Positions 3,601 through 56,477 of a stretch of 64,000 bases of DNA are shown piece by piece (positions within the stretch are counted from its first letter, which is position 1; each line of letters begins with the position of its first letter). Both the position numbers and the translations under genes were made by a program. The notes under the pieces are model-generated. The model searched no databases and had not been told where the DNA came from. It saw only the letters and a list, made by a program, of their open reading frames with translations. This DNA is from Ophiura sarsii (Eukaryota; Echinodermata; Ophiuroidea; Amphilepidida; Ophiuridae), in NCBI GenBank assembly GCA_035610835.1, contig CM069443.1:64203577-64267576 (forward strand), in the 5' to 3' direction.

Positions 3601-5561
3601 ACAATTAAGCAGATTTCAAACAATTTATTCCTTACCTTAAGTTAACCCTATTAAATTATTACATCCTGGCCTGCTCCATCTAAAAGCTCACTCTGGCCTG
3701 TTTATGAGATACTAAACCAGATTTATTTCTTACCTTTGACCCTAACTTGTGTAATGAAATTATTGCGGCCTGAGCTGCTCCAAGCCACTTATAGTGGTTT
3801 GTTAAGCTTCTATCCTTAACGCGGCATTGCTCAGGATATACTAAACCCGGTTTATTTCTTACCTTTGACCCCAACCAGTGCAATAAAATGATTGCGTCCT
3901 GAGCTGCTCCATGACACACATAGTGGTTTGTTAAACTTCCCATCCTTACCACGGCATTGCTCAGGGGATACTAACCCAGGTTTATTTCTACCTTTGACCC
4001 CAACCAGTGCAATGAAATGATTGCGTCCTGAGCTGCTCCATGCCACACATAGTGGTTTGTTAAACTTCCCATCCTTACCGCGGCATTGCTCAGGAGATAC
4101 TAAACCTGGTTTATTTCTTACCTTTGACCCCAACCAGTGCAATGAAATGATTGCGTCCTGAGCTGCTCCATGCCACACATAGTGGTTTGTTAAACTTCCC
4201 ATCCTTACCGCGGCATTGCTCAGGGGGCACCAAACCAGGTAGGAACACACCTGCGTGAATGTAAAAGCAAGCAATAAATATTATTAACATTTAATATTAC
4301 GGTATCATATTCCTGTTTCTTAACTTTAGTTAGCCATTAACCCAACACCATCAGTGGGAGAAAAATGGATTAAATTACAGGGGAAGCCCCGGGAATCAAA
4401 CTTGGGTCACCTGTGTGGAAGTCCCGCCCCCACCTGATCGCGTCAAGGAGTCTGCTTTGAGGATCTTAAGATTTTCGTCAGCATATGAAAGCCTGCCATG
4501 AGACTGAGGGAGCACGTGCTACCAGCACCTAGTAGTGATACGTAGTACTCAGAAACGTTAGGGTTAATTACAGTGTGCATCAAAGGTATAGATTTCACCC
4601 AATATCATGATGTATGGAGTGTTTCTAATTAAATAATCAAACTAACCTGTATAGTCTCCAGAGCTCTGCAATCCACTCAAAGAATCCAGTAAAATGATAG
4701 GTCTATGAAGCACATTAGCCAATCCAAATATGTGAATGTTCTGTAACCCAAACGCCTCATTCGGTCCTGGCAAGTAGTCTGGATCACTCTCAGCAATGAT
4801 GATCTCCCACTCCTTAGCATCCACAAAATCGCAGAACAGATTCTTGTAGCGTTCCAAGTTGTCCAAGAAGTGCGTTTTTAGGTTTGTTCTGAGCGCATGC
4901 CAGAAGAGCTCTCGTCCTACGAGCGCTCTGGAAATCCCATGCACCAGGCAATGACCGTCTCCGTCAGCGTGGATCGGGATCAGGACTTCTTGACCATCGT
5001 GAAAGTTGTAGATCATCTGGAGAGTCTGCGACAGGTACTTTGCACTTCCGGTTTGGTCACGTCCGTAACCCATGATTCCGATGTGTTCCGGTTGTATGAG
5101 AAAAGCGCGACTACCTAACACGGAACAGTCAAAGACATCTTTCTGATTGACTTCTCTTAAAGGTCTAGCTTTGTTCTGCTTATCCATACCATAGTAGGTC
5201 AACAATGGACTCAACAGTTTGCAATGGTAGTTTGACAGGCCGAGAACTTTGATCGAGTCGGCTGTTTTCTTGGGCGTGAAGTTACCCACCAGTAAGTTTC
5301 GAACCATGTTGTGCAGCGCCACCTCGGGATCCGTGACCTCCTCTGTGTCGCCCATAGCCGAACGAGGATGGCGTTGCCCACAGTTGGAGCATTCTATACT
5401 GGTGTCGTACGATGGAAAGTACAACTTGGTTTTGCAGGATTCATCGGGGCAGGTGCCACAGAGAATGCGATATCGTTCAGCTGGTGCTTTGGATCTGCCG
5501 GGTAACATCTTGGATAGATGGTTGGTTATATCAGATGAGAGTGGTATTTCTTGATGAGGAT
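429..5561 (-). CDS. VCPIP1: VCPIP1-like deubiquitinase, 5 exons, 3' part beyond left edge
   Basis: Family knowledge: VCPIP1 (VCIP135) is an OTU cysteine protease that binds p97/VCP and p47 and is needed for Golgi and ER reassembly after mitosis. Five exons join in frame on the minus strand (4647-5561, 4122-4250, 2427-2557, 1800-1911, 429-647), giving about 484 codons from the Met at 5508. Order: an N-terminal Cys-rich zinc ribbon (CGTC, then SNC); an OTU Cys box DGDGHCLVH with Cys at about residue 187; the OTU His box SSSGRNHF with His at about 322; then KAWGVP, VVGGDRSLQ and PGGDLYEEA blocks typical of the family. The Cys-to-His distance of 135 is close to that of the mammalian protein. All junctions have GT/AG sites and matching phases (1, 1, 0, 1). 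Mammalian VCPIP1 is about 1220 aa, so more than half should lie to the left of the window. The second exon is followed by a tandem array of its own 3' part. Confidence 0.93.
701..947. mobile_element. MITE family A, copy 1
   Basis: About 247 bp with terminal inverted repeats GGGTTGAGCGCCAGAAGGC at the left and its complement at the right. A second copy in the opposite orientation is at 22333-22584 and shares the internal sequence. No coding capacity. It sits in a VCPIP1 intron. Confidence 0.82.
948..1060 (+). mobile_element. tRNA-derived SINE fragment
   Basis: Has an A-box-like TGGTTCAGTGGAACAGCGC, a B-box-like GTTTTGAGTTCTAGCCC, and a tail CCTTGGACAAGGCACTTAC. That layout is typical of widespread tRNA-derived SINEs. 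No target duplication identified. Confidence 0.55.
1175..1445. repeat. Inverted repeat, about 75-bp arms
   Basis: The left arm 1175-1250 (begins ACACTGCAAATTATGAGCG) and right arm 1367-1444 are near-perfect reverse complements. The spacer holds short direct repeats of about 24 bp (AAAAGTAAACGCAATTCTAA). Foldback or MITE-like; the short open frames across it are not genes. Confidence 0.75.
1800..1911 (-). CDS. VCPIP1: VCPIP1 exon (ATAMEEVF / VADVHHY)
   Basis: 112 nt and too short to stand out as an open frame. Acceptor CCCTGTACAG, donor AAAAAG/GTTAGT. It starts DKYIQRLATAMEEVFLDKYG and ends with HPSVVADVHHYIYKQK, matching the segment that follows GGDRSLQ in VCPIP1. Phases 0 in, 1 out fit both neighbours. 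Confidence 0.88.
2222..2292 (+). repeat. tRNA-Gly(GCC)-like SINE head or pseudogene
   Basis: TAGCGCAATCAGTA D-arm, then a CCGC-CTGCCAC-GCGG anticodon arm, then a B-box-like GGGTTTTATCCCC. The acceptor ends do not pair, so this is a tRNA-derived repeat rather than a working tRNA gene. Confidence 0.5.
2427..2557 (-). CDS. VCPIP1: VCPIP1 exon (KAWGVP / GGDRSLQ)
   Basis: 131 nt, acceptor TTCTTCTCCAG, donor CAG/GTGGGT. Reads LPRLPRWMLTKAWGVPHDLI and then YIEFDQDDMCVVGGDRSLQ, both close to the family. It completes the split Gly codon left by the His exon and ends in phase 0. Confidence 0.9.
2922..3370. mobile_element. hAT-like non-autonomous element
   Basis: 449 bp. Ends CAAGCGTGTGCAACC and its near complement GTTGCACATGCTTG. 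Flanked by GTATAAGC (left) and GAATAAGC (right), an 8-bp duplication with one mismatch. Contains a GC-rich GCGGCCCGCGGGCC segment common in hAT-derived repeats. Lies in the VCPIP1 intron. Confidence 0.72.
3690..4121 (-). repeat. Tandem array of the VCPIP1 His-exon 3' part, each unit with a 5' splice site
   Basis: Three further copies follow the exon, with GT donors at 4121 (A), 3991 (B), 3862 (C) and 3733 (D), a period of 129-130 bp. Each unit holds about 113 nt of the exon, from the PGLV region to VKG, plus about 14 nt of intron (GTAAGAAATAAACC). The exon's acceptor and pyrimidine tract are not copied. Copies B and C keep the GRNHF histidine codon. B lacks one base in the intron part, so B reads open into C. 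D is decayed: CTATAAGTG gives a stop in the exon frame, and His is replaced by Asn (GRNNF). A fragment of a fifth unit lies near 3690-3732. Decay increases away from the real exon. Confidence 0.85.
4122..4250 (-). CDS. VCPIP1: VCPIP1 exon with OTU catalytic His (array copy A)
   Basis: This 129-nt exon has acceptor TTCACGCAG at its 5' edge (4250) and donor AAAG/GTAAGAAA at 4121. It supplies FLPGLVPPEQC, then GKDGKFNKPLCVAW and SSSGRNHFIALVGVKG. The His in GRNHF aligns with the second catalytic residue of VCPIP1 OTU domains. It enters in phase 1 from the upstream exon and leaves in phase 1 into the exon at 2557. It is the only copy of the array with a normal acceptor, so it is taken as the constitutive exon. 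Confidence 0.92.
4251..4646 (-). other. VCPIP1 intron between the OTU Cys and His exons
   Basis: No gene or clear repeat seen. It ends with the branch/acceptor region TTTACATTCACGCAG of the His exon. Confidence 0.6.
4647..5561 (-). CDS. VCPIP1: VCPIP1 exon with zinc ribbon and OTU catalytic Cys
   Basis: The first Met in frame is at 5508, but the frame is open upstream to a good splice acceptor (pyrimidine-rich tract ending in ACATGCAG, exon edge at 5561). This may therefore be a second exon with a short N-terminal or 5'UTR exon further right; mammalian VCPIP1 has a longer proline-rich N-terminus. From Met5508: Cys17, Cys20, Cys25, Cys40 and Cys43 look like zinc ligands; residues 83-105 (KVLGLSNYHCKLLSP region) are strongly family-like; DGDGHCLVH with Cys187 is the protease nucleophile box; RPIILLDSLSG lies near the end. 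The donor is CAG/GTTAGT, phase 1. The start is uncertain, the identity is not. Confidence 0.92.
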
Positions 5562-6159
5562 CTGCATGTAAGAAGAAAGATATTTTTTTAAATGAAATGA
5601 GAAATTTGCATTTAATTTAACATAAAATGCAAACCATAAGATACCTTGTACAACCTAAACACCCCCCCCCCCCCCCCCCCCCCCCTGCGTATGCGCCTAC
5701 ATCGAGTGTATTAATAATTCCTATACATCACTTGTACAGCGTGCGCAGGCTGCCAAGGCATTTTAAGATACATGTAGGCCAATACATCTTTAAGATCTAT
5801 GACATAACAAACAGAAAGTAGCACGAAAATAGGCTTAGCATCATGTCACGTCACAAGGACGGGGAAGGACAGTTAAGTCAAATATATAATCAATTATGCG
5901 TCATCTTTTCACCCTCTAAACGAGTAGTGAGGATTTTACATTTCTCTCCAAAATTTTGCACACATAAAAACCCTAGAATACCACACTCACATTCTCCCTT
6001 TAAAGTGTTTTTATCAAAAGAAAGTAAGGTAACAAATCATGGGGCGGGACATGGACACCTGTGGTCTTTATTGGTAGTTTTATGAACAGGAAAAAATACT
6101 TCTGAAACCTGGGACGAATATCACCTAAATTGAAATATTCGCGTCGTAGCCAAACATTC
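5562..6159. other. Upstream region of VCPIP1 with C24 homopolymer
   Basis: Begins (minus strand) with the pyrimidine tract of the splice acceptor at 5561, so more VCPIP1 transcript is expected to the right. A 24-base C run lies at 5662-5685. No further exon recognised. Confidence 0.5.
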
Positions 6160-6620
6160 AGGCCCGTATTCTCGTACGTAGTTAAACACGGTTTTAAGCT
6201 AAACACAAGTCTAACTTTGACTTTAGACAGCATTTAACTAAACGCAATTCTCGTACATTTGTTTTACTTAAACACGCATCTAACTCGCTGAAATGTGTCT
6301 AACTTTAAACATGGGTACGGGGGTAGTTTAATATGTGTTTAACTAAACATGCGCACTAACTGTATGCCTTAAATGATCACTCAACCGTACCATGTATTTA
6401 AGGCATTCGGTCGATATCTATTGTAACACATTAGGGCCACAATGAATTAGATACCTGTATACAATCAGCGCAGGACCACTCTGGGAACAAGATTTGCAGA
6501 GTTTAAAATCATGTTTTGTTAAACACGTCGTTTAAAGGATAAACTCACGTTTAAGTTAGACACACGTTTAGTTAAACACGGTTTTAAGCTAAAACCGTGT
6601 TTAGTACGAGAATACGGCCC
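6160..6620. mobile_element. MITE with CGTATTCTCGTAC ends
   Basis: About 460 bp. The left end has CGTATTCTCGTACGTAGTT and the right end its counterpart AGTACGAGAATACG; both inner flanks repeat TTAAACACGGTTTTAAGC. Related sequence occurs at 59355-60358. Confidence 0.75.
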
Positions 6621-7914
6621 TCAATGTCTATGCCAATTAGCACAGTATTACAGGGACTCGTGGGGTAGTGGGTGACCCCTGACAGAAGGCTTACCCCCCC
6701 CCCCCCCCCCCCCATGCGCTGACAAACTCTATACTAATAAATAGTCGGTTATGCCCCCTGATCACAGGTTTGTCCCCCTCATGCTGCCTTGCCCCCCCCC
6801 CCCCCATATATTCATCTCACCGTGGTCCACCGGAAAACGCAATATAGCAACTGAGCTATCCTTACACTACCGCACAGTCATGGATACATGTACTATTGTT
6901 TATGTTTTAAATGCAATAATTTCTTAAAGTGACTGAGAATAGGCCTAGCCTAGGGCCTAGGCATTATATATACCCTTATTAAAACAAGATATTTAAAAAA
7001 CAATTGGTCAAAGTCAGAGAATGAAATTAACAGAGGACAAATTTAAAGGAAATATGAAAAAGAAGATTTAGACAGTCAGTGTATGATGTGTCTCAACAAA
7101 AACACTTTAATTAAACCATGTATGTATCAAATAAAAATTAAAAATATAGAGAAATGCCATACAAATAACAAATTTGTTTCCAGTAGTGCGCGTGCATTTC
7201 ACTGAGACACTTAGCTTTAATTAGTTTAGTTTTATTTGGCATATCAAAACACAGAGATACAATTACATCAGATCAATATACAAATCTTAAAAATTACAAA
7301 AATGTACACAACATATATTATAAAAGAAAACATTTAACGCCAAGGATAGCCAAAGAAAGCCCTAAAAAGGGCTTATTTCCATTGGTCAAAGTGATTGCGC
7401 ATTTAATTTTTTTAATAGAAAAAACGGGGACAAATATTGTCAAAATTGTGTCCAACATGTTTCAAGATGGCAATTGACCACAAACACGAAAGTGAAACTT
7501 TAATTCGCGGCGAATATCACATTTTAGGGAGTATAATAAGAGTAACAAAAATGCACAGATTTGACTAAATAAAACCATTTTAAGTGAATCTCCACTATGA
7601 ATTTGAGCAAAACAATAAAATAAAAAAATGTATTTCGCATTTGACTTTTCAGGCTTGCTACTGGAAACAAATTGGGTTTTTTTCTTCCTAAGGCGCCTTA
7701 ATTTTTTTATTCGATTCTTGAAGCGCGCCCGCCTCACTTTTGGCCCCGTATTGGGGTTTTTGTTTTTTTTTCTGTCTGAAAAAAATAGCCTAGCTTTAGC
7801 GCCCTCATTTTCGGAGCCGTCTCTTTGAAGGATTAAAACACAACCACGTAAAAGCAATGCACCATATTTCTCATGGACTTCAAAGTCTTCATTATCTGAA
7901 AAAAATCCTTTTTT
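6621..7914. other. Intergenic, no gene seen
   Basis: C-runs near 6695-6713 and 6793-6805, AT-rich elsewhere. A 206-codon minus-strand open frame (7462-8082) crosses a simple tandem repeat, has no recognisable domain or splice context, and is not called. Confidence 0.5.
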
Positions 7915-8095
7915 TTGTTGTACCAATGTACCTTTTTTTGTACCACTGTACCTTTTTTTTACCAATGTACCTTTTTTGTACCAATGTACTTTTTGGGGGC
8001 AGTAATGTACCTTGCGACAAACTTGTGCAACCTTGCAGTTGCAACCACCTTGCGCAACCTGGTACCACCTTGCTGCAACCACATTGTGGTGATTG
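7915..8095. repeat. Short tandem repeat (TGTACCTTTTTT and TTGCAACC units)
   Basis: Five or so imperfect units of about 18-20 bp (TGTACCAATGTACCTTTTTT), followed by TTGCAACCACC-type units. Simple-sequence origin. Confidence 0.7.
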
Positions 8096-8347
8096 CATTT
8101 TTGTAAGGGTTGTCAGATTATATTTCGGTACTTTTTAAAACCGCCAACGCATGCATCTAGTTAATTAAATTTAAGCATGTGGGCGGGGACATTCATGACC
8201 CATAGATACGATCGCGGCCAATCAGATTACAGATACAGATATGCCGCGCCACGTCGACTTCTCAAAGATAACGCTGTTGTGACGCTGTTCTATAGACTAC
8301 AACGCACTGCCAGTTGTCACAGAAAAAAGTCTATAGGCTATAGACAA

Positions 8348-8561
8348 TATTCATGCGGCAGCCATTTTCTAAAATTTGCCACCCAAGCCTCGTTCTCGTT
8401 ACGTATACCTGCGCCTGCGTGACTTGCGTGAGGATGCGTACGCCGCGTGCTTTGGTACCACGCTTCTCGCGCAGTTCTATTTGTGCAGCGCGAGGCGCAG
8501 ATAGACCAAACGGGAACGAGGCTTGGGTGGCATATTTTGGAAAATGGCTGCCGCGTGAATA
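8348..8561. mobile_element. Foldback MITE, about 45-bp arms
   Basis: The left arm starts TATTCATGCGGCAGCC and contains CCACCCAAGCCTCGTTC; the right arm is the near-perfect complement ending GGCTGCCGCGTGAATA. About 214 bp, non-coding. Confidence 0.8.
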
Positions 8562-9345
8562 GAGTCTACTCTAGAGACTAGACTAGCTAGTATAAAACTG
8601 TATAGGGCCTACTCCTAACAGACTAAAAGTAAAATGTACATGTATGACGTTCTAAATTACGCTTACTTTATTTAGCAAGCTTGAACTTGAGAGAAGAAAA
8701 AGGAATTCTTGAATTGCTTGCCAGTTGTTGCAAGCACAAATGACATTTCAACAACAAACAGCAGAATCATGAGACATGAATTTCAATTTGGAAATCAGTC
8801 GTGAACATCATGAACATATTATTTAATTATTAAATTGTTGTATCAAATACTGACCAACCCGTATTTCAGCTACCGAAATGACTCGTCTCACGAAGATATG
8901 ATAAAGCTATCATGAATTCATTATTTTCCTGTTGAACTGCAGCAAAATCATGAAATCTCTTTCTGTCGTCGTTGTTCGTGATCTGTTTGGGTTTTTCCTG
9001 ATTTTTCTTGAACTTTGAACCATATTGACCCATTATCTTAGTTAGTTACCATATTAACCGGGTTAAGTGGATTACTCATTTAGAATAACATCACTGTTCA
9101 GTCACTAATTTAATATTCAAGATAAAAATCACACAATTTCATATTCTATAATATTTAAGAAGTAATCATTAAGAAAAATAACTAAATTTTAGTATATGAT
9201 TGCATATTTTATATTGATCTCACCACTTTACGATTTAAACTTTTTCATGACCTAGGCATAAGTTGTTTTAACTTAAAAGCCAGTTTAATGGGTCAGAGGT
9301 TAATGTAATTAACTCCCGATTTTGCGAGAAATCAACATTTTTGAG
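8562..9345. other. Upstream region of PPP1R2
   Basis: AT-rich. No TATA box or CpG-rich block stands out. ATGGCGG, which resembles a YY1-type element, overlaps the start codon at 9346. Confidence 0.45.
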
Positions 9346-9461
9346 ATGGCGGAGAACTCTGAGAAAACTGATGAAAAACCTGTCAAAGTTAGGTTACCTG
9401 AAGCAAAAAAGGGGATTTTGAAATCTCCAGGATTTTACGATGATCCAGCTAACAGACCCGA
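9346..9461 (+). CDS. PPP1R2: PPP1R2 exon 1 (KGILK)
   Basis: Starts GAGATGGCG, a reasonable initiation context. Encodes [10 protein letters not shown] through [13 protein letters not shown] and ends CCCGA/GTGAGT, phase 2. Confidence 0.9.
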
Positions 9462-12400
9462 GTGAGTTTTTTTATTAGTTTGTGGAGAAATCTTGGAGAA
9501 AATATAGGCCTAATAATTATAAAGCTTTATTAAATTATTAAAATGGTGCCAAATTCGGCACTTTAAACATAAACAAGTTGACAAAACCTTAGGCCAAGGC
9601 CAGTCGCAGATTGTGGCGATTTGGATTCGCTCAAGTGGATTATGAAACGCAAATCGCTCAAAGCAACTCGAAAGATCAAACGACCAGTCGTGCTACTGCT
9701 AGTGCTAGTCTGCCTATCTCGATACACTTACAAGTTACAGTACAGTAACTTTACAGCGTCAGCGTCAACATTTTGAAATTCGAAATGGCAAAGACTATTC
9801 GCCCGTACAGACGGCTGTATGCAGCCATAAGGACGTCCAATGCTTCTGTCAATCACAAGTTCTTTCTATTGTCTGGCGATACGAACTTGTTTACCGTGCA
9901 TCAGCTCAGTGCGTTTTCAATCACTTGATCGATCAAATATCAACTAAACGACTTGGTCGGTTGTCATCAATAGTACATGTAGTATTGCCCACCGGTTTTA
10001 CTAGGAAAGGTTTCTTTGTTTTATATTGGTTTTACCATGGTTTTACCCACTAAATAGTATGAGACTACAGACATTAAGATTGTTTGGCATTGTTTCAAAC
10101 ATTACTAAAAAAATACTTTTCATAATTTGTGTCAATCTTTCGGAAATGTTTCGTCGCGGGGATTGGGGTGCAGGGAACAAGACTAGCATAGCTCAAGAGC
10201 AAGTAGACTGGGCGATCGATTGGCGGCCCGTGTTTACATCTTCATGTACAATTGATCACCGAGTGATTGAAAACGCACTGATGCACGGTAAACAAGTTCG
10301 TATCGCCAGACAAAAGAAAAAACTTGTGATTGACTAAAGCAGTGGACGTCCTTATGGCCGTCTGTATTCGCCCGGGTACCCTGTAGCTAATGCTAATGCC
10401 CGGGCAACTATTGAGGGCGCTATATCGCTGCAGCTAAAGGCTGCAATTATATTGCCAGGGATGCCAGGGCTACTATTGAGGGCGCTCTATAATTGACCCT
10501 GCAGCTAAACCCTGAACATCTATTCGCTGGGGTAACTATTGTTGGCGCTATATCATTGACCCTGCCCTGAAGCTAAAAACCGAAAATCAATTCACCTGTT
10601 CCGAAAATATCAATGCCACAAACTGGAATGAGGACCACCACAAATTAACATTTACCAATTTTGTCTTGACATGAACCACAGTCTGTCAGTAATATTTGTC
10701 AGCAAAAAAAAAAAAAGGAAAATTGACCGACCGACCAGATTTATGGCATTTGAGGGCAACACAACAACCTTTTTTGCCCTTATTACCCTGTAAGATTCAA
10801 TATTTTCCCCCTTTTTTCCATTTTCCAGAGAAGGAATCAAGTGGGATGAGATGAATATATTACAGACATTTCACCCAGCAGACAAAGACTACGGTCATAT
10901 GAAGGTTGACGAACCAGACACCCCGTTCAATAAGGTTAAATATGCGGAGGGAGATGAAGCCATGAGCGATGAAGAGGGAGATAAGCAGCTATGTCCAGAT
11001 GCATTGTCCAAAAAGTAAGTCATATGAAGTTTGACGAACCAGACACCCCGTTCAACAAGGTTAAATATGCGGAGGGAGATGAAGCCATGAGCGATGAAGA
11101 GGGAGATAAGCAACTATGTCCAGATGCATTGTCCAAAAAGTAAGTCATAGGTTGACGAACCAGACCCCGATCAACAAGGTTAAATATGCGGAGGGAGATG
11201 AAGCCATGAGCGATGAAGAGGGAGATAAGCAGCTATGTCCAGATGCATTGTCCAAAAAGTAAGTCATATGAAGGTTGACGAGCCAGACACCCCACCCCGT
11301 TCAACAGGGTTCTAGTTACGGTGGGCGGCACTTGGCGGGGCCGCCCGGCACTGACAATATCTGCCCAGCACTCTAAAAAAAAGGTTCCTATTTTGTAAAA
11401 AAAATGTTTAACAATTTGTGGATAAAATCATTAAACTGCCTCATAAAACAAGAAATTATGTGGCAGTAACCCTCAGAGTGCATTAAAATACCCTAAAAAG
11501 ACATTAAAAAGGCCTCTGGATCCCATGCCATGATCCACTGCACTTCGTTCGCTACACTTTCTCCGTTCGCCGTCAGTAAATTTACCCGGCACTAAGATGG
11601 TCCTGGCTAGAACCCTGCCGTTCAATAAGGTTAAATATGCGGAGGGAGATGAAGCCATGAGCGATGAAGAGGGAGATAAGCAGCTATGTCCAGATGCATT
11701 GTCCAAAAAGTAAGTTCAAATATATGGATGGAAATGAAGCCATGAGCAATAATGAGGGATACAAGCAGCTATGTCCAGATGCATTGTCCAAAAAGTAAGT
11801 TCAAATATACAGATGGAAATAAAGCCATGAGCAATAATGAGGGATATATTAGCAGCTATGTCCAGATGCATTGTCCAAAAAGTAAGTTCAAATATATGGA
11901 TGGAAATGAAGCCATGAGCAATGAAGAGGGATATAAGCAGCTATGTCCAGATGCATTGTCCAAAAAGTAAGTTTATACGGATGGTAATGAAGCCATAAGC
12001 GATGAAGCCATGAGTGATGAAGAGGGAGATAAGCAGCTATGTCAAGATGCATTGTCTAAAAAGTAAGTTCATATCGACGCTGTTCTGTTACAACCTTTTA
12101 TCTCCATCTGGCCCTTCATAATGTATAAAGCAGGGTTTCTCAACAAGTGACCTGCAGGCCAAATCCGGCCCATCAAGCAATGTTGAATGGCCCTTGAAAA
12201 TCTCTAAAAACAAATAAAAACATAACAAAAAGGACTAAAGAAGGCAATTTGGCCCCTGAGATGTGTTTCTTTAAATATTTTTGGCCCTCCACCATAATTA
12301 GTTGAGAACCCCCAGTATAAAGTAATACTTCCTATGTGTGTATAACCATTGGAAAGTTTTACTTTATACATGCTGAAGGGCCTGAAAATATACCAGCGAC

Positions 12401-15400
12401 GATATTCTTATCATTTCTCCATTGGCACAGCCATAGGAGGCCATTTAAAATAGTTTGCACAGCCATTTTTCAAAATTACACACCCAATTATCTGATTACA
12501 TGACCTAAATTTATCTTTAAACAAAATTTCATTTCTCCATTTTCGAACCTAATCTTTTTAATTTACGCACATAGAGTTCCCTGTTGAATCATGCCCAAAC
12601 CACTGATATGGAGGCTTAGTTATTACTTCTGTAAAACCTGATCCATAGAATCCCATCACAGGGAAAAAAGGTGTGAAAGTGTTCTGAGTCTTGACATTGG
12701 TTGAACCATTGATGGGTAATGAAAAGAATAAATCGTTGTTAAAGATTAATTTACATTAAAATGTGTATCAAAAACACAAGTGTCTTCAAACAGTGTACCC
12801 AGTGTTCTAAGGAGTAAGAACCAGAATGTCGGTTAATACCTGATCTTCCAAGTTATATCTTTCTTTTTTTCAAGATTTAAATTTTACATAATAGACGTTA
12901 TTCATAATTGGCGATTTCGTGTCTAAAGAGGGAGACATACTCGATAAACATACAATCTGGTACTTTTACTGCAATGTAATGAACCGTAACATTTCATTTC
13001 AAACTAGTGGATTAGAAAGTTTATACTTTCAAGTTTATTTCACGAATGTAATAAGGTCAAATATTGAACAGCTCAGAAGTATGAATCATTTTTTATGATT
13101 GGTGCAAAGTTCACCACATTGAAAAACTACATCGTTAGCCTCGTTTTCAGAGCACTAATTGCTCTGAGCATGCTCAGTTGGATAGCACGGTCCTCTTTTG
13201 AAGTAAATGCGCCAATTATGAATAACTTCTATTGGTCAAAATATTACTACTGTAAAACACTATAATTTTGTGGATACTTTATTTTGGCAAATTTAAAGTA
13301 ACTGCTATTTTAGCGGGCATTTAATTTGGCGAATCTGGAAATGTTACTGTTACTTTCAATGCAAAATTGTTAGTTTCACGGGTATTTAATTTCCCGAATC
13401 CGCATCTATCCCGAAATTTGTGAAATTAAATCCATCGCAAAATTAAGTGGTTTTACATTATTCTCATCCTCACAGGTTGGAGTGTGACAGTATACAAAAA
13501 AGGTGGTGGGAAAAAGATGCGGGTGAGGAATCCAGCAGTGATGAAGAGGAAGAACATCTAACAGAGGAACAAAAAGGTTGGTATGGGCCCAGGGAAGGGA
13601 ATAGTAGGGGCCTGTTACACACAATGGGCCGGGGAAGGGAATAGTAGGGGCCTGTTACACACAATGAGCCAGGGAAGGGAATAGTAGGGGCCTGTTACAC
13701 ACAATGGGCCGGGGAAGGGAATAGTAGGCCTGTTACACATAATGAGCCAGGGAAGGGAATAGTAGGGGCCTGTTACACACAATGAGCCAGGGAAGGGAAT
13801 AGTAGGGGCCTGTTACACACAATGGGCCGGGGAAGGGAATAGTAGGCCTGTTACACATAATGAGCCAGGGAAGGGAATAGTAGGGGCCTGTTACACACAA
13901 TGGGCCGGGGAAGGGAATAGTAGGCCTGTTACACACAATGAGCCAGGGAAGGGAATAGTAGGGGCCTGTTACACACAATGAGCCAGGGAAGGGAATAGTA
14001 TAGGGGCCTGTTACACACAATGGGCCGGGGAAGGGAATAGTATAGGGGCCTGTTAAATTTTCTTGGAAGCAGGCAGGGTGTAGATACTCAGGGGGGAGAT
14101 GGGTCACATTTTGCAAGAAATCCCTATTAGACATGCGGTATGATTTAGTGCTGAAAAACCCTAAAGCACAAAAATGACAAATTGGTCTATTTTATTCCTT
14201 AGAACAGCTGTAAAAGCTATTATTGTCATCTAAGAAATATTACTATTCAAATTCGTGTCAAATTTAGCCGGCTAGTGACAACCCCGAACATGGTCGTGTT
14301 TTGCAAAAATCATGTAAACACAGTGAAATCAGTCATTTTAGGTATAGAAAACCCCAAAATACAGATAATAAGGGTCAAAGCAGCAGTTTGAGGTTAAAAA
14401 AACCCGTTAAATATGGGTCATGGTTTCAAACCTCCAGCGGCCTCAAAATTGATGCATTCCAAAGTTTGAGTTGCATAACTTCAATGGTGCTTATTTTAGA
14501 AGTACAAGGTCGCAAGATATATGCTAGGGACAGGGATTTTGCGCTTTTTAAAAGCACTAAAAGTGCTGCTTGATTTTGGAAAAAGTGCTTTTTGGAGCAA
14601 AAGGTGCTTTTTTAGGTAAAAGGTGCTTTTTTTTTAGTAAAAGGTGCTTTTATTCACCAAAATTATGCCATGCGTTAAAAATAAATCCAAAAGCGATTAT
14701 ATTCCATGTTTCCATGTTGACGTATTTCTTTTTTCATTGTCAAAACCATCATTTTTCATTCAAAACTACATTCAAACTAAACTAAGTGTAGAATAAACAC
14801 TTCCACGGTTATGTAACTTGTTGATTTTTAGGTAGATGGACATTATTTGTTAAATATTTAGACAATTTTGAAAAAAAAATGCTGTGTGATGAAAAAGTGC
14901 TATTTTGGGCAAAAGGTGCTTTTTTTTGTGCTTTTGCGCTTTTGAGCATTTTCCCTGTCCTTAATATATGCCCATTGAGTAGTACACTAACTGGCTGGTG
15001 GTTAACCACCTTTGGCAGTAATTCACCACATTTTAGTCTATAATTTGTAAATGGAACATTTCTGGCCCCTAAGATTTTACAGACATAATGAAAAAATATG
15101 GGGATTCTCCTGATATCAAAATTTCTTGGTGTGAAAAAAAAATCATAGCCCAAAAAAAGTGATACACCTTTAAGCTTGGGACAGTGATTTGTGTGTATTT
15201 TGCTTATCTGGAGTGAGAAGTTGAAGTATTTTTCAATATGTTTATTTACAATGCAATCAGAGGAAGTCAGGGATATTGATAGATGGTAAAGAAGTCTGGC
15301 AGAGGTAGACAAAATATGTCCATAAAATGGTAGAGATAATTGTATTAAATTACACATTAAATGCTGGTTTTTGTCTCGCCTGAACTTGTTCAGAAAGAGA

Positions 15401-15461: not shown

Positions 15462-18335
15462 CGACCTAAGAGACAAGAAATCTGGAGATCCGTAAGGCCT
15501 ATCTTGATGGGACTTAATGTAGGGAAGGGGGTGGTGCGTTCTGTTACTGATTGAATTTTCAAGGTCATTGGAGGTCATTCAAGGTCATTGGGGTCAAATA
15601 TGCTTTAAAACTTTTGTGACGCGTTGTAACGCGATATCTAGAGATCCGTAAGGCCTATCTTGATGGGACTTGATGTCAGGGAAGGGGGTGGTGTGTTCTT
15701 TTGCTGATTAGATTTGCAAGGTCATTCAAGGTCATCGGGGTCAAATATGGGGTCAAATAGATCCATAAGGCCTATATTGATGAGATTTGGTGGAGGGAAG
15801 GGGAGTGGTGTGTTCATTTTGCTGAATAAATTTTCAAGGTCATCAGAGGTCATTCAAGGTCACCGGGGGTCAAATAAGATCCGTAAGGCCTATCTTGATT
15901 GGCTTTGGTGGAGGGAAGGGGGGTGGTGTATTCTTTTTGCTGATTAAATTTTCAAGGTCATCGGAGGTCATTCAAGGTCATCTGGGGTCAAATAAGATCC
16001 GTAAGGCCTATCTTGATGGGATTTGGTGGACGGAAGAGGGATGGTGTGTTCTTTTTGTTGATTAATTTTTCGAGGTCATCAGAGGTCATCTGGGGTCAAA
16101 TAAGATCCGTAAGGCCTATCTTGATGTGATTTGGTGGATGGAAGGGGGTTGGTGTGTTCTTTTTGCTGATTAAATTTTCAAGGTCATCGGAGGTCATCTG
16201 GGGTCAAATAAGATCCGTAAGGCCTATCTTGATAGGATTTGGTGGACGGAAGAGGGATGGTGTGTTATTTTTGCTGATTGATTTTTCGAGGTCATCTGAG
16301 GTCATCTGGGGTCAAATAAGATCCGCAAGTCCTATCTTGATGTGATTTGGTGGAGGGAAGGGGGTTGGTGTGTTCTTTTTGCTGATTAAATTTTTCAAGG
16401 TCATCAGGTCATTCAAGGTCAAATAAGATCCGTAAGGCCTCTCTTGATGGGATTTGGTGGAAGGAAGCTGGATGGTGTGTTCTTTTTGCTGATTAATTTT
16501 ACGAGGTCATTCAAGGTCATCTGGGGTCAAATAAGATCCGTAAGGCGTATCTTGATTATATTTGGTGGAGAGACGGGGTGTGGTGTGTTCTTTTTGCTGA
16601 TTAATTTTTCAAGGTCATCTGGGGTCAAATAAGATCCGTAAGGCCTATCTTGATGGGATTTGGTGGAGGGAAGGGGGATGGTGTGTTCTTTTTGCTGATT
16701 AAATTTTCAAGGTCATCAGAGGTCATTTAAGGTCAAATATGGGGTCAAATAGATCAGTAGGGCCTATCTTGATGGGACTTTGTGGAGGGAAAGGGGGGTG
16801 TATTCTTTTTGTTGATTACATTTTCAAGGTCATTGGAGGTCATTCAAGATCGTCTGGGGTCCCCTAAAATGTCTTGCCTCCTTTTGCCCCCCCCCCCCCC
16901 CCCCAAATTATGATGCTGGCGCCGCCACTGCATAGTCCAAAGGGGGTGGGGTACCATCTATCTCAACTTTGAAGGGCCATAAAGCGGAAACGATTAGTTT
17001 GTGTTCCGCAAAATTTTTAGTACTGGGTAACATTTGAGCATCCCTTAAGGTATTACATCCCTTGCATTAACTACAATGCATACCTCTGTGACAGTGCTAC
17101 ATTGTATCATATGTTTCATCATCATTTCTTTCAAGTCACTTTTGATGAACAGGCGAGACACGCCGTTCGAGAACCGCCTTGTTTATTTATCGATTGATTC
17201 ATTCATTGATAGATTCTTTCATTCATTACCATACTTCGTTAGCAACGGTCAAAACAGAGCAGGGCTACAGGCCGTTTTCTCCAAGATTTGACGAAACGAT
17301 TTACAAGGGTGACACAATCAAAGTTGAACTGCAGCATTAGCTCTATCATTTAGTTGAGTGATTATTGCGCCTACTCAAGGAGCATATATTGAAAAGAGCC
17401 CTTGTTGTCTAAAAAAATGGGGCTCCCTCATGAATTTAGTCGATTTTGGGGAGGAAATGGCCCATGTAATGAATTATTTTGACCCCTGCTCATTAGATCA
17501 TCATCAACCTACTGTAAAAGTAGAAATTTTCGCAGGGTTTTTATTTTCGCGAATTTCGCGAATCAATCCTCATCCGCGAAAATATAAACTCGTGAAAATT
17601 ATTGAATTCCATTGACTTTTGTTCACAAATGTTGAAAATCGTGAAAATAAAAAATCGCGAAATGCCTGTTATGACCATTTTCGTGAAAATATTTTATCGC
17701 GAAAATATTGACTCTTACAGTATATTTCCAATTCATTATTCATTTACCCTCTCATCCATCCTTCAATCATCCATCCGTCCCCCTTCCATTAATGCATGGT
17801 TTGATCTGTTCCAAATTGGTGAATCCTCCTTACAGCAGCGAATAAATTCAGAAGGATGCAGCCGTGCATGAAGGCAACAAGCACACTGTGTATCATATGC
17901 GTGACCAGGTGTGCAGTAAAAACAGCATGCATGTCACCGTATTCTTGTCGCCCTAAGCTTGGATTATTTTTTGCACACAGAGAGATAAAACCCGAATATT
18001 TCTCGCCAATTTAGAGCTGATTAAACTCTAGATGATATTCACTCGTGTATTTTAACATACTTTTCTGCCATTGATTGATTGATTCCACAGACGAAAGAGC
18101 CCAGTTCCAAAACAAGAGAAAACACCACTACAATGAAGCCCAGAACATGCAGCTAGCAAAACAACTCATAGAGCAAGAATTGGCAGAATTGGAGGAAGAA
18201 GAGGCCATGGCCAAATCCTCCGCTATTCAAGGAACTGATGGGGCAGTGGCAGGGACCTCTGACCCCCAAACAGCTGAGTCATCACAGGATGTTGACAAGC
18301 ATGCTGGGAAGACGGAGGAAGCCATGCAGCAATGA
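9346..18335 (+). CDS. PPP1R2: PPP1R2-like protein phosphatase 1 inhibitor-2, 4 exons
   Basis: Family knowledge: inhibitor-2 binds the PP1 catalytic subunit and blocks its active site; phosphorylation of a TP threonine by GSK3/CDK reactivates the complex. Exons 9346-9461, 10829-11014, 13476-13576 and 18091-18335 join in frame to 215 aa (human 205). Seen: KGILK at 22-26 (PP1-binding SILK-type motif); KWDEMNIL at 43-50; HPADKDYG at 54-61; MKVDEPDTP with Thr70, the regulatory site; an acidic SSSDEEEE at 120-127, a likely CK2 target; KRKHHYNE at 143-150 including the HYNE box that enters the PP1 active site; and an acidic helical tail. All junctions are GT/AG with phases 2, 2, 1. Exon 2 is followed by an 8-unit array of its own 3' part. 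Confidence 0.94.
9806..10366. mobile_element. Foldback element in PPP1R2 intron 1
   Basis: 561 bp with long inverted arms (about 140 bp) starting TACAGACGGC and ending GCCGTCTGTA. A perfect 8-bp target duplication TTCGCCCG lies at 9798-9805 and 10367-10374. The 103-codon frame inside is not a gene. Confidence 0.9.
10385..10600. repeat. Short tandem repeat in PPP1R2 intron 1
   Basis: Two to three imperfect units of about 80-90 bp carrying ACTATTGAGGGCGCTATAT and GACCCTGCAGCTAAA. Confidence 0.65.
10829..11014 (+). CDS. PPP1R2: PPP1R2 exon 2 ([19 protein letters not shown] site)
   Basis: 186 nt. Acceptor TTTTTTCCATTTTCCAG, donor AAAAA/GTAAGT. It is the first and only full copy of the array that follows; later units lack the acceptor and the KWDEMNIL part. 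Confidence 0.93.
11015..12063 (+). repeat. Array of PPP1R2 exon-2 3' parts, each with GTAAGT donor
   Basis: Seven extra units after exon 2. GT donors lie at 11015, 11140, 11259, 11710, 11795, 11882, 11967 and 12063. Units 2-4 keep the [21 protein letters not shown] segment (about 119-130 bp); units 5-8 are shorter (85-96 bp), start at the FKY segment and have drifted. Every unit ends in the nearly invariant GCATTGTCCAAAAAGTAAG. In the exon frame the donor reads AAA AAG TAA, a stop. Unit 4 is split by a hAT-type insertion at 11305-11617. Confidence 0.9.
11305..11617. mobile_element. hAT-type MITE inside array unit 4
   Basis: 313 bp with perfect 11-bp inverted ends CAGGGTTCTAG / CTAGAACCCTG and a perfect 8-bp target duplication CCGTTCAA (11297-11304 and 11618-11625). 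CAGGG ends plus an 8-bp duplication are typical of hAT. No transposase. It inserted after the array unit existed. Confidence 0.92.
12131..12314. mobile_element. hAT-type MITE in PPP1R2 intron 2
   Basis: 184 bp. Left CAGGGTTTCTCAAC, right GTTGAGAACCCCCA, perfect 8-bp duplication GTATAAAG at 12123-12130 and 12315-12322. Internal GGCCCATC and TTTGGCCCTCC resemble hAT-derived repeats of other animals. Confidence 0.9.
12890..13233. mobile_element. MITE family B, copy 1
   Basis: Ends AATAGACGTTATTCATAATT and its complement AATTATGAATAACTTCTATT. A second copy, inverted, at 22641-22990 shares the internal text (GAGCATGCTCAG, TAGTTTTTCAATGTGGTGAA in one orientation). Confidence 0.8.
13246..13460. mobile_element. 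MITE ending 15 bp before PPP1R2 exon 3
   Basis: Left TACTGTAAAACACTATAATT and right AATTAAGTGGTTTTACATTA are imperfect inverted ends. Its right end lies next to the acceptor of exon 3 (exon starts 13476), so it probably contributes part of the branch/pyrimidine region. Confidence 0.6.
13476..13576 (+). CDS. PPP1R2: PPP1R2 exon 3 (acidic SSSDEEEE)
   Basis: 101 nt. Acceptor TTCTCATCCTCACAG, donor AAAAAG/GTTGGTATG. Encodes [16 protein letters not shown] and then [16 protein letters not shown]. The donor is weak (GTTGGT) and is followed at once by a minisatellite. Confidence 0.9.
13583..14058 (+). repeat. 40-bp minisatellite abutting exon 3 donor
   Basis: About 12 copies of a roughly 40-bp unit (GGGAAGGGAATAGTAGGGG, CCTGTTACACACAATG), in two alternating variants (GGGCCGGGG and GAGCCAGGG). 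The array starts within about 10 bp of the exon 3 donor. Confidence 0.92.
14525..14963. mobile_element. hAT-like element in PPP1R2 intron 3
   Basis: 439 bp. Left end TAGGGACAGGGATTTTGCGC, right end TTTTCCCTGTCCTTA. Perfect 8-bp flanking duplication ATATATGC (14517-14524, 14964-14971). The inside holds four AAAAGGTGCTTTTT units. Confidence 0.85.
14985..15195. repeat. Dispersed repeat, copy also flanks the 8.7-kb element
   Basis: The text around TTTCTGGCCCCTAAGATTTT and ATGGGGATTCTCCTGATATC appears, reversed, on both outer sides of the insertion at 40415-49083 (40340-40414 and 49084-49330). Confidence 0.75.
15418..15461 (+). repeat. (CTGT)n microsatellite
   Basis: Eleven perfect tetranucleotide units. 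Confidence 0.95.
15470..16865 (+). repeat. Long-unit tandem repeat (about 90-140 bp)
   Basis: About 11-12 imperfect units. Each contains AGATCCGTAAGGCCTATCTT, GGTGGAGGGAAGGGGG, TTCTTTTTGCTGATTAA and AAGGTCATCTGGGGTCAAAT. A smaller array of the same family is at 55473-55760. Ends at a C-run (16889-16904). Open frames through it are artefacts. Confidence 0.9.
17513..17725. mobile_element. MITE with TACTGTAAAAGT ends
   Basis: Left TACTGTAAAAGTAGAAATTT, right GAAAATATTGACTCTTACAG; TA-bounded, Tc1/mariner-like. Internal TTTTCGCG repeats. Confidence 0.7.
17880..18035. repeat. Dispersed repeat, second copy at 27240-27400
   Basis: Shared phrases CATATGCGTGA, GCTTGGATTA and TTTCTCGCCAATTT link the two loci. 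It lies just upstream of the PPP1R2 exon 4 acceptor. Confidence 0.6.
18091..18335 (+). CDS. PPP1R2: PPP1R2 exon 4 (HYNE, acidic tail)
   Basis: Acceptor GATTGATTCCACAG. Encodes [19 protein letters not shown], then [18 protein letters not shown], and ends EEAMQQ stop. The HYNE box and following helix are the conserved PP1 active-site segment. An in-frame Met exists upstream (18075) but lies in the intron. Confidence 0.93.
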
Positions 18336-30339: not shown

Positions 30340-30639
30340 ATGAATCTAACATTTTATGCAATAGTACTTCCAGGCTCCAGGGGGCTATGTCTTCTGCTAC
30401 ACCGGTAAGGTTAATACACAAATGTTGCTATATACAGAAGAATTGATAGCTTTCCGGATTTACGGATGGGGATGGGGGACTCCATGTGGTTGTCTTTAAA
30501 ACCAAAAAAGCCAAACAAATTGCATGGTCAAAATCACGCAGGTACCGACGGCATGCGTTGTGTACCAACAGGGTAATTTTAGGGTGGGGGGGAGGGGGCA
30601 TTCCCCCTGGCTACGCCACTGACTTGGTTTCAAAATTGT

Positions 30640-32310
30640 TCAAAAGACTTGACTTGACTCAAGTCACCTATTCAAAAAACTTGAATCAAATCACCTATTC
30701 AAAAGACGATTTGACTCAAGTCACCTATTAAAAACACCTGACTTGAAGTCACATATATTTAGAAATGTGACTTGACTCAAGTCACATATTCAAACGACTT
30801 GACTCAAGTCACCTATTCAAAAGACTTGACCCAAGTCACCTATTCAAAAGACTTAACTCAAGTCACCAATTCAAAATACTTGATTAGACTTGACTCAAGT
30901 CACCAATTCAACAGACTTTACTTAACTCAAGTCACATATTCAAAAGACTTGACTTGACTCAAGTCACCAATTCAAAAGACTTTACTTTACTCAAGTCACA
31001 TATTCAAAAGACTTTACTTGACTCAAGTACCTATTCAAAAGACTTAACTTAACCTAATGTTCAAAAGACAGGACTCGAGTCACCTATTCAAAAGACATGA
31101 CTTGACATATTCAAAGACTTGACTTGACTAAATTCACCTATTCAAAAGACGACTTGACTCAAGTCACCTACAAGTCACCTATTCAAAAGACTTGACTTGA
31201 CTCAAGTCACATATTCAAAAGACTTGACTCGACTCAAGTACCTATTCAAAAGACTTTGCTTGACTCAAGTCACCTATTCAAAAGACATGACTTGACATAT
31301 TCAAAAGACTTGACTCAAGTCACCTATTCAAAAGACTTGACTTGACCTAATGTTCAAAAGACAGGACTCGAGTCACCTATTCAAAAGACATGACTTGACA
31401 TATTCTAAGACTTTAGGGGGCTGGCATTTTCTTCGGAAGGGGGGGGGGGGGGGGGGGGGGTCCCAAAAATGTGGATAGACCCAGACAATTTTTTCATGAC
31501 CCCCCCTATCCAAGAGCTGCATATTTTTATGACCCCCCCCCCCCTACCTTTTTTTTTCTTCACGCAAGCATGCTTTGATAAATTTGTGACCCCCCCCCCC
31601 CCCATTTTCAATGAAATAATTTTATGACCCCCCCTGTTTTCATGTCAAAAAAACTATGACCCCCCCCCAGTATATTTGGGACCCACCCCCTTCTGAAGAA
31701 AATGCCAGCCCCCTTACTTGACTAAATTCACCTATTCAAAAGACTTGAATTGACTCAAGTCACCTATTCAAAAGACTTGACTTGACACAAGTCACATATT
31801 CAAAAGACTTGACTTGACACAAGTCACATATTCAAAAGACTTGACTCAAGTACCTATTCAAAGACTTTGCTTGACTCAAGTCACCTATTCAAAAGACATG
31901 ACTTGACATATTCAAAAGACTTGACTCAAGTCGCCAATTCAAAAGACTTGACTTGCCTCAAGTCACCTATTCAAAAGACTTGACTTGACTCAAGTAGGCC
32001 TACCTATTCAAAAGACTTTTCTTGACTCAAGTCACCTATTCAAAAGACTTGACTTGACTCAAGTCACATATTCAAAAGACTTGACTTGACTCAAGTACCT
32101 ATTCAAAAGACTTGACTTGACCTAATGTTCAAAAGACAGGACTCGAGTCACCTATTCAAAAGACATGACTTGACATATTCAAAGACTTGACTTGACTCAA
32201 GTCACCTATTCAAAAGACTTGACTTGACTCAAGTCACATATTCAACAAAAGCCTTGACTTGACTCAGGTCACATATTTAAAAGACTTGACTTGACTCAAG
32301 TCACCTATTC
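30640..32310 (+). repeat. Minisatellite, about 26-32-bp unit
   Basis: More than 40 imperfect units of TTGACTTGACTCAAGTCACC plus TATTCAAAAGAC. Interrupted at 31415-31715 by another element. The frames that read DLTQVTYSK repeats are a consequence of the unit, not a gene. Confidence 0.95.
31415..31712. mobile_element. Foldback element inserted in the minisatellite
   Basis: Left GGGGGCTGGCATTTTCTTC, right GAAGAAAATGCCAGCCCCC, arms about 40 bp, flanked by TTA on both sides (a 3-bp duplication as in PIF/Harbinger). The interior has several C7-C14 runs and ATTTTTATGACCCCC phrases. Confidence 0.8.
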
Positions 32311-32490
32311 AACGCAAATATAGCGCTACTTGATTGAGTAAGTTGAGTCTAAAACAATTGTTGTTATTATAAAAATAAATATTATGCCTAATTTCAGTAC
32401 TTCAAGAACTTGATGTGACTTGATATAAAATCAGTCGCTTGACTTGTGCCAACCAGTGATTTGACTTGACTTCTTGACCCAATGGATTGA

Positions 32491-55472: not shown

Positions 55473-55760
55473 CAGTGGGGTCAAGTAAGGCCTATCTTGA
55501 TGGGACTTGGTGGAGGGAAGGGGGTTGCATGCTTTTTTGCTGATTACATTTTCAAGGTCTTTGGAGGTCATTCAAGGTCATCTGGGGTCACTTGATGAAA
55601 GGAAGGGGGTTGCATGTTTTGGGCTGATTAAATTTCAAGGTCATTGGAGGTCATTTAAGGTAATCTGGGGAACAAGTAAGGTCTAACTTAATGTGACTTG
55701 GTGAAGGGAAGGTTTTTTTTTTTTTTTGTTGATTAAATTTGCAAAGTCATTGGATGTCAT
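55473..55760 (+). repeat. Second array of the 15.5-16.9 kb repeat family
   Basis: About two and a half units with GGCCTATCTTGATGGGACTT, GGTGGAGGGAAGGGGG and TTCAAGGTCATCTGGGGT. Confidence 0.85.
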
Positions 55761-56477
55761 CAAGAAATGTGCATCGAGGTTTCAACTTGTAAAATAGGAA
55801 GCAACTTAGAAAATGCTCTTATATGAGCGGTTCAGATTTAATTTCTACAATAGATCGCACAAGAAGGCGGTCGCGAAAGCAGGTGAGACTAGTGGTTCGA
55901 GAACAGCCTTGTTTATGAAAACGGTAGAATAGAACCTCCAAATAACCACCAAAAAAATATGTTGTCTTGGTGCCACAATTAGATGAAAGTGCTTCAAATT
56001 AAAATGTGCAAAATAATTAATTGGAGTAGAATTTCAAACCATTTTCTTATCTCAATCTGTCATGATAAAATCAAAATGTGTGGTAACCACATAAAATTAC
56101 AATTTTGCCAAAATATCAGACCTCGCACCCGCGTGTGTGCGTTTCTTATCAGTGATTGTTGACATAATTGTACATTTATATGTCGAAATTGCAACACTTG
56201 TATAATTGGTGCAGTATATATCGCTAAATTTATCAATTAGATATTAACTATATTTATCATATATAGTGCTAGAAGTAAATGTAACTTGAAATATATATAG
56301 CCATTTGTCTCGTGAGCAGTTAATAATAGAACTCTCTTACTGCTACAAAAACAAATATCAAATTCACTGTCTAGGCGACGTTTAAACGCCAATTGCAAGA
56401 TTTCTCGAACTTGGGGCTCACAAACACAAAAAGTAGTTCAAATCTCTCATCAAAAATCGCTAAAGCATCTGAACATC
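55761..56477 (+). promoter_or_regulatory. Upstream region of the TRIM gene
   Basis: A TATATATAG at about 56293, some 185 bp before the ATG, could be a TATA element. No acceptor is evident just before the ATG, and the frame is open for a short way upstream. Inference only. Confidence 0.3.

What the first reader, a model, noticed from the sequence alone, without database searches (positions are those of the whole stretch)
3690..12063. Same exon-plus-donor tandem architecture in two unrelated genes in opposite orientations
Seen: both arrays copy the 3' part of an internal exon and the first intron bases, both leave out the acceptor, both have a unit near 120-130 bp in the copies nearest the exon, both place an in-frame stop just after the exon. 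Two independent cases within 8 kb suggest a process that duplicates exon/5'-splice-site junctions in this genome, or selection to keep extra donors. I know of tandem exon duplications with both splice sites, but not of a described class of donor-only exon arrays.
Basis: inference. Interest (0 to 1): 0.75.

Follow-up and report, generated by a model that had tools for sequence, protein, structure and literature searches.

The report
Tandem exon-end copies inside introns
In this animal genome, short stretches of DNA are often copied side by side, and when a stretch holds the end of an exon with its splice donor the gene can apparently tolerate it, so extra exon ends pile up in the next intron.

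Summary
Both arrays are real. VCPIP1 exon 2 (minus strand) and PPP1R2 exon 2 (plus strand) are each followed by tandem copies of the exon's 3' part plus donor, without acceptor. I tested the idea in the same 1.57-Gb genome (size fits the brittle star Amphiura filiformis). Twelve further donor-side cases turned up in myosin, kinesin and dynein genes (8 read as letters, 4 from match rows only), against 1 clear acceptor-side array and 1 ambiguous row pair. So the architecture recurs. It is not an excess at donors: 42 of 452 random points in loci not chosen for arrays have a local tandem copy spanning them, 48 of 300 in the window, but only 3 of 93 donors and 0 of 74 acceptors called in such loci. 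Two of ten window donors is unexceptional (P 0.24 to 0.49). Best explanation: frequent local tandem duplication everywhere. Donor-side copies survive because the first-transcribed copy is the complete exon; acceptor-side copies put an incomplete exon first and are mostly purged. No donor-specific process is needed. Selection to keep extra donors is not shown: donors are weakened or lost in 7 of 13 diverged copies. The donor/acceptor asymmetry is the interesting residue.

The parts
4122..4250 (-). VCPIP1 (VCIP135) coding exon 2, functional: acceptor ...CACGCAG before 4250, donor GTAAGA begins at 4121; phase 1-1
   Evidence: translation joins exon 1 in frame; splice sites read; exon 1 Pfam VCIP135_N
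3690..4112 (-). array 1: three full extra copies of exon 2 3' part + donor (+ about 28 intron bp) and one decayed fragment; unit 129-130 bp
   Evidence: TRF; alignment; three extra donors
4647..5508 (-). VCPIP1 large coding exon 1, from a putative ATG to the donor; the exon itself probably starts further upstream
   Evidence: ORF, Pfam VCIP135_N and OTU, donor
10829..11014 (+). PPP1R2 (IPP-2) coding exon 2, functional; donor GTAAGT at 11015
   Evidence: Pfam IPP-2; splice sites
11019..11306 (+). array 2 first block: two full copies (unit 125 bp, the second with a small deletion) and one truncated copy of exon 2 3' part
11307..11615 (+). 309-bp insert inside the array, 9-bp inverted ends GGGTTCTAG/CTAGAACCC (MITE-like)
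11616..12066 (+). array 2 second block: one long copy, then units of 85, 87, 85 and 96 bp, each with a GTAAGT donor
13583..14055 (+). array 3, 40-bp unit, begins about 6 bp after the exon 3 donor of PPP1R2 (13577); holds no exon sequence and no copy of that donor
   Evidence: TRF; sequence; donor not spanned
13476..13576 (+). PPP1R2 coding exon 3
   Evidence: ORF; splice sites
18091..18335 (+). PPP1R2 coding exon 4
   Evidence: Pfam IPP-2 match E 7.8e-5, just under the curated cut-off; acceptor

Best explanation
The arrays are ordinary local tandem duplications, frequent in this genome, that happen to span an exon's donor. Shown: 42 of 452 random points in loci not chosen for arrays are spanned by a same-strand copy within 1.5 kb; donors are spanned no more often; acceptors least often; unit ends in array 2 share short homologies (CATAT, GTT). 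Inferred: a duplication starts through slippage or microhomology-mediated repair between exon and nearby intron, then grows by unequal exchange. A donor-side duplication leaves acceptor, whole exon and donor intact as the first copy transcribed; the extra exon ends lie in the intron without an acceptor and are spliced out, so the change is near-neutral. An acceptor-side duplication puts an acceptor with an incomplete exon first, which invites wrong splicing, so selection removes it more often. The exon is kept by purifying selection while the copies are free to decay.
For: Random points spanned: 42 of 452 in L005-L051, 48 of 300 in the window. Splice sites by the same test: donors 5 of 71 and acceptors 0 of 55 callable among 77 exons, donors 2 of 31 and acceptors 0 of 26 callable among 37 further exons. 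Dropping all exons of L002-L004, which I fetched because arrays were visible: donors 3 of 93, acceptors 0 of 74; acceptors against random points P 0.002, donors against random points P 0.06. Window: 2 of 10 donors and 0 of 9 acceptors; 2 or more of 10 has P 0.24 to 0.49 at background rates. By a stricter self-comparison 7.6% of positions in L005-L021 and 15.3% in the window lie in a local duplication. Array 2: intron GTAAGTTCATAT and exon GGTCATATG meet in the junction GTAAGTCATATG. In potato, a tandem duplication across an intron-exon boundary did change splicing and created an intron with inserted exon sequence (PMC4974935, passages).
Against: Donor against acceptor within the junction test alone is modest (7 of 102 against 0 of 81, P 0.018, with the loci chosen for arrays; 7 against 1 of 82 once the known acceptor-side array is added, P 0.077), and the unselected part alone (3 of 93 against 0 of 74) does not separate them. 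One clear acceptor-side array with about seven extra copies exists (L002). Donor 9-mers in copies are kept somewhat more often than expected. Decay with distance from the exon is seen in only 4 of 6 arrays with two or more scored copies: array 1, L003, L004 and L013 have their most diverged copy farthest out, array 2 has it in the middle, and L002 shows no decay. No RNA data. Paralogous exons (C5 and C15 gene pairs) inflate n. Random points include intergenic and transposon-derived sequence. Splice sites were called by a home-made score.
Confidence: 0.7

Rival explanations
1. A mutational process targets exon/5' splice-site junctions, for example R-loops or repair primed at the donor, and produces donor-anchored duplications at an elevated rate.
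For: Donor side far outnumbers acceptor side. In 5 of the 6 arrays that I sized by eye (array 1, array 2, L002, L003, L004), exon sequence makes up most of the unit and the intron part is short, about 3 to 70 bp.
Against: Donors are spanned less often than random points (3 of 93 against 42 of 452). Exon-based searches favour units rich in exon. The sixth array, L013, has a unit of about 400 bp with more than half intron.
Confidence: 0.1
2. The extra donors are kept by selection as decoy U1 sites, slowing or regulating splicing, or coupling it to nonsense-mediated decay through the stop behind each exon copy.
For: All ten scored extra donors in the window keep GT; 21 of 29 scored copies keep the donor 9-mer against 16.1 expected, and 6 of 13 against 3.0 among copies under 90% identity. 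Both window genes have a stop just after the functional donor.
Against: Copies within an array share history, so the naive P values (0.016 and 0.055) overstate, and copies were found by alignments that include the donor. In 7 of 13 copies under 90% identity the donor is weakened or lost, with GT gone in three. The L002 array has no stop for 233 codons.
Confidence: 0.12
3. The copies are used as alternative or repeated exons, with cryptic acceptors between units.
For: In array 1 the unit boundary reads TTTAG|TATCTCC, which would give an in-frame exon (sequence, read by eye).
Against: Only 22 bases would separate the preceding donor from that site, with no clear pyrimidine tract. Array 2 units of 85 and 87 bp are not multiples of three in the case of 85, and differ in length from one another.
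Confidence: 0.04
4. Assembly artefact: repeated read-through of one exon end.
For: The published A. filiformis assembly used nanopore reads (PMC11310086 passages), if this is that assembly.
Against: Copies differ by substitutions and small indels, units differ in length, and an insert with inverted ends sits inside array 2.
Confidence: 0.02

Closest known systems
[quoted passage not shown] Drosophila cases PMC2891723, potato RdRp PMC4974935)
   Same: Local tandem duplication that includes exon sequence and splice-site signals; the splicing outcome decides whether it is tolerated.
   Different: There the duplicated AGGT or the duplicated acceptor creates a new intron that is used. Here a donor without an acceptor is multiplied inside an existing intron and, as inferred, nothing in the mRNA changes.
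Tandem exon duplication / mutually exclusive exons (recalled)
   Same: Several copies of an exon in a row.
   Different: Those copies carry both splice sites and stay open; these lack the acceptor and are truncated at the 5' end.
Intronic minisatellites (recalled)
   Same: Arrays of short units grown by slippage or unequal exchange; array 3 (40-bp unit) is one.
   Different: Here the unit contains coding sequence and a donor, and the first unit is a functional exon.
Decoy or pseudo 5' splice sites and exon definition
   Same: Extra possible U1-binding sites downstream of an exon.
   Different: No evidence of use or regulation here; the link is by analogy. On exon definition I saw passages of PMC8724738; decoy sites are recalled.

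Membership tests
Tandem exon duplication with both splice sites | each copy contains acceptor, whole exon and donor | tested here: not met
   acceptor and 5' end of the exon absent from every extra copy in both window arrays
Intron gain by tandem duplication | duplication creates a new used intron | not testable with these tools
   needs RNA; the existing intron already contains the array
Intron gain by tandem duplication | duplicated segment carries AG|GT so that both sites of the new intron arise from it | tested here: inconclusive
   array 1 units do carry AAAG|GT and array 2 units AAAAA|GT at the donor, but no acceptor with a pyrimidine tract was seen by eye in either; no acceptor score was run on the copies
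Local tandem array (minisatellite-like) | head-to-tail, near-identical short units | tested here: met
   TRF units 129 and 125/85 bp, 89-93% matches
Local tandem array (minisatellite-like) | no enrichment at donors over random points | tested here: met
   3 of 93 donors against 42 of 452 random points
Selected decoy donors | donor kept while the rest of the copy decays | tested here: inconclusive
   21 of 29 kept, 16.1 expected, copies not independent; 7 of 13 diverged copies weakened or lost

The most novel reading that the evidence does not exclude
Donor-anchored exon arrays are a standing feature of this genome with a function: the exon, held constant by selection, keeps seeding fresh copies into its own intron, and the row of strong donors acts as a bank of U1 decoy sites that tunes splicing or mRNA decay of the gene.
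Probability: 0.1. Interest if true: 0.75.

Novelty: new variant of a known kind. Interest (0 to 1): 0.42.

Why it matters
If the donor/acceptor asymmetry holds genome-wide, a tandem-duplicating genome is a natural experiment on splicing. Each duplication that spans only one splice site tests whether the cell ignores an extra donor after an exon, or an extra acceptor before it. The ratio of surviving donor-side to acceptor-side arrays would measure how strongly each is selected against. It also warns that gene predictors and homology searches can see several exon copies where one is used.

Tried and rejected
Rejected: donor-specific duplication process (no excess over random points); whole-exon duplication (no acceptor); transcribed alternative exons (22-base gap); artefact (divergent units, inserted element). 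The 120-130-bp unit as a shared signature was rejected, because periods in other loci vary widely. L045 first looked donor-side but its copies begin inside the intron. The repeated intron end downstream of exon C16:177986 turned out to belong to an acceptor-side array of the next exon. A dynein row pair (C14:54625986-54626575) stays ambiguous. Kinesin and dynein cases rest on match rows alone; their letters were not read. CCT (66 rows) and ABC membrane (76 rows) showed none in the rows by eye. The five family searches scored only part of their first-look candidates (65 of 228, 87 of 92, 122 of 251, 122 of 144, 90 of 258), so they sample the families. The SNF2 family search did not complete. 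Paper searches whose listings showed nothing on donor-only exon arrays: (titles, abstract starts and counts only, apart from the passages read). Before the donor-retention count I dropped two alignments that did not reach the donor (one in each window array).

Full report
What is there. The window lies at C3:64203577-64267576 of a genome of 1,573,662,873 bases in 748 contigs. Size and the contig lengths seen fit the published brittle star Amphiura filiformis (1.57 Gb, 20 chromosomes over 60 Mb, N50 68.8 Mb; PMC11310086, passages); this naming is an inference. Two genes stand head to head: VCPIP1 on the minus strand and PPP1R2 on the plus strand (Pfam). Downstream of coding exon 2 of each gene there is a tandem array of the exon's 3' part with its donor. 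In VCPIP1 the unit is 129-130 bp, with three full extra copies and a decayed fragment (4112-3690, minus). In PPP1R2 the unit is 125 bp, then 85-96 bp, with seven extra donors between 11140 and 12063 and a 309-bp insert with 9-bp inverted ends. The acceptor is in no extra copy.

Is it a class? A search of the genome with the myosin head family (77 rows) showed three exons whose C-terminal part is repeated just downstream. The letters confirm the same plan: L002, 90-bp unit with six further donors, open throughout; L003, 184-bp unit; L004, 156-bp unit. I gave 52 of the 77 rows to a local comparison, of which 47 lay in the 20 fetched loci. Of these 47 exons, 8 had downstream copies; one of these is really the edge of an array of the next exon. 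The only upstream hit was the L002 array matching itself. Two further donor-side cases (L004 second exon, L013) came from extra exons found by tblastn. Match rows of kinesin (122 rows) add three (C13, C18, C10) and dynein (92 rows) one; CCT (66 rows) and ABC membrane (76 rows) add none. Counting the C5 paralogue pair once, that makes 8 + 3 + 1 = 12 donor-side cases outside the window. Acceptor-side: one array (L002, 134-136-bp unit, about seven copies of intron 3' end, acceptor and exon start before the complete exon). One dynein row pair is ambiguous. Sign test 12:1 P 0.003, 12:2 P 0.013; rows alone 7:0 P 0.016, 7:1 P 0.07. The tally was assembled after the first cases were seen, and it mixes methods.

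Is it an excess at donors? I called splice sites by a simple home-made score and asked whether an 80-base probe centred on the site has a same-strand copy within 1.5 kb that spans it. Donors 5 of 71 and acceptors 0 of 55 callable (77 exons); further exons, donors 2 of 31 and acceptors 0 of 26 callable (37 exons). The same probe at random points: 42 of 452 in L005-L051, which were fetched for exons and not for arrays, and 48 of 300 in the window. L002-L004 were fetched because arrays were visible; without any of their exons the figures are 3 of 93 donors and 0 of 74 acceptors. Acceptors lie below random points (P 0.002); donors tend below (P 0.06) and show no excess. Donors and acceptors of this unselected set (3 of 93, 0 of 74) are too few to tell apart. 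In the window 2 of 10 donors and 0 of 9 acceptors are spanned, and 2 or more of 10 has P 0.24 to 0.49 at the two background rates. The test misses old copies (L005 second exon and L017 were seen only), and the acceptor-side array of L002 is not in these counts because its acceptor was miscalled; adding it gives 1 of 82, and the comparison with 7 of 102 donors then has P 0.077.

Mechanism. Duplication ends share short homologies: in array 2, intron GTAAGTTCATAT and exon GGTCATATG meet in the junction GTAAGTCATATG; the 85-bp sub-array joins GTT of intron and exon; array 1 joins two stretches alike over about ten bases, CTGGTTT(A/G)GT. That suggests slippage or microhomology-mediated repair, then unequal exchange (inference). 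Of six arrays with two or more scored copies, four have the most diverged copy farthest from the exon (array 1, L003, L004, L013); array 2 has it in the middle and L002 shows no decay. Why donor side? After a donor-side duplication the first copy made by the polymerase is the whole exon with its acceptor and donor, and the rest are exon ends without acceptors in the intron. After an acceptor-side duplication the first acceptor leads into an incomplete exon. The potato RdRp gene is a printed case where a duplication across an intron-exon boundary changed the mRNA and gave a new intron (PMC4974935, passages). Old minigene work on duplicated splice sites may point the same way, but I only recall it and did not read it. 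This step is inferred; there is no RNA evidence here.

Do the extra donors do anything? In 29 scored copies from eleven exons the donor 9-mer is identical to the functional one in 21, against 16.1 expected from each copy's exon identity (naive P 0.016; copies are related, so this overstates). Among 13 copies under 90% identity, 6 keep it (3.0 expected, naive P 0.055) and 7 do not, with GT gone in three. I read this as inconclusive, leaning to no function.

Comparison with print. The nearest described things are intron gain by tandem duplication (PMC2891723 and PMC4974935, passages), and tandem exon duplication and intronic minisatellites (recalled). My searches listed no paper on donor-only exon arrays; the library holds open-access papers only, so this is weak evidence of absence. 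Filed as a new variant of local tandem arrays.

Noticed in passing
L002, C16:177990-176920 (minus): Acceptor-side array: about seven extra copies (134-136 bp) of intron 3' end, acceptor and exon start in front of the complete exon of a myosin gene; the mirror image of the finding, about 1.5 kb from a donor-side array.
   Followed up: partly
window 11307-11615: 309-bp insert with 9-bp inverted ends inside the PPP1R2 array, MITE-like; its copy number in the genome was not checked.
   Followed up: partly
window 13583-14055: 40-bp-unit array of about 11 copies starting about 6 bp after the exon 3 donor of PPP1R2, without exon sequence.
   Followed up: partly
window 30639-32312: Large degenerate array of about 32-bp units (CTTGACTCAAGTCACCTATTCAAAAGA).
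   Followed up: no
window 15477-16870 and 55477-55760: Arrays of a unit rich in AAGGTCA motifs, present at two places in the window.
   Followed up: no
window 56316-58190: Single open frame of 624 codons with RING and B-box Pfam matches (TRIM-like).
   Followed up: no
L005, L006, L008, L009, L013, L014, L018-L021: A dispersed repeat whose translation reads much like NHHEKCIEISTNMPSIGSVILEIDL turns up in these loci when translated myosin-locus segments are used as queries.
   Followed up: no
C5:59.22/59.36 Mb, C15:53.18/53.26 Mb, C3:87.10/87.24 Mb: Gene copies with nearly equal match scores in opposite orientation about 75-150 kb apart (myosin, CCT, kinesin): recent inverted duplications or unmerged haplotypes.
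   Followed up: no
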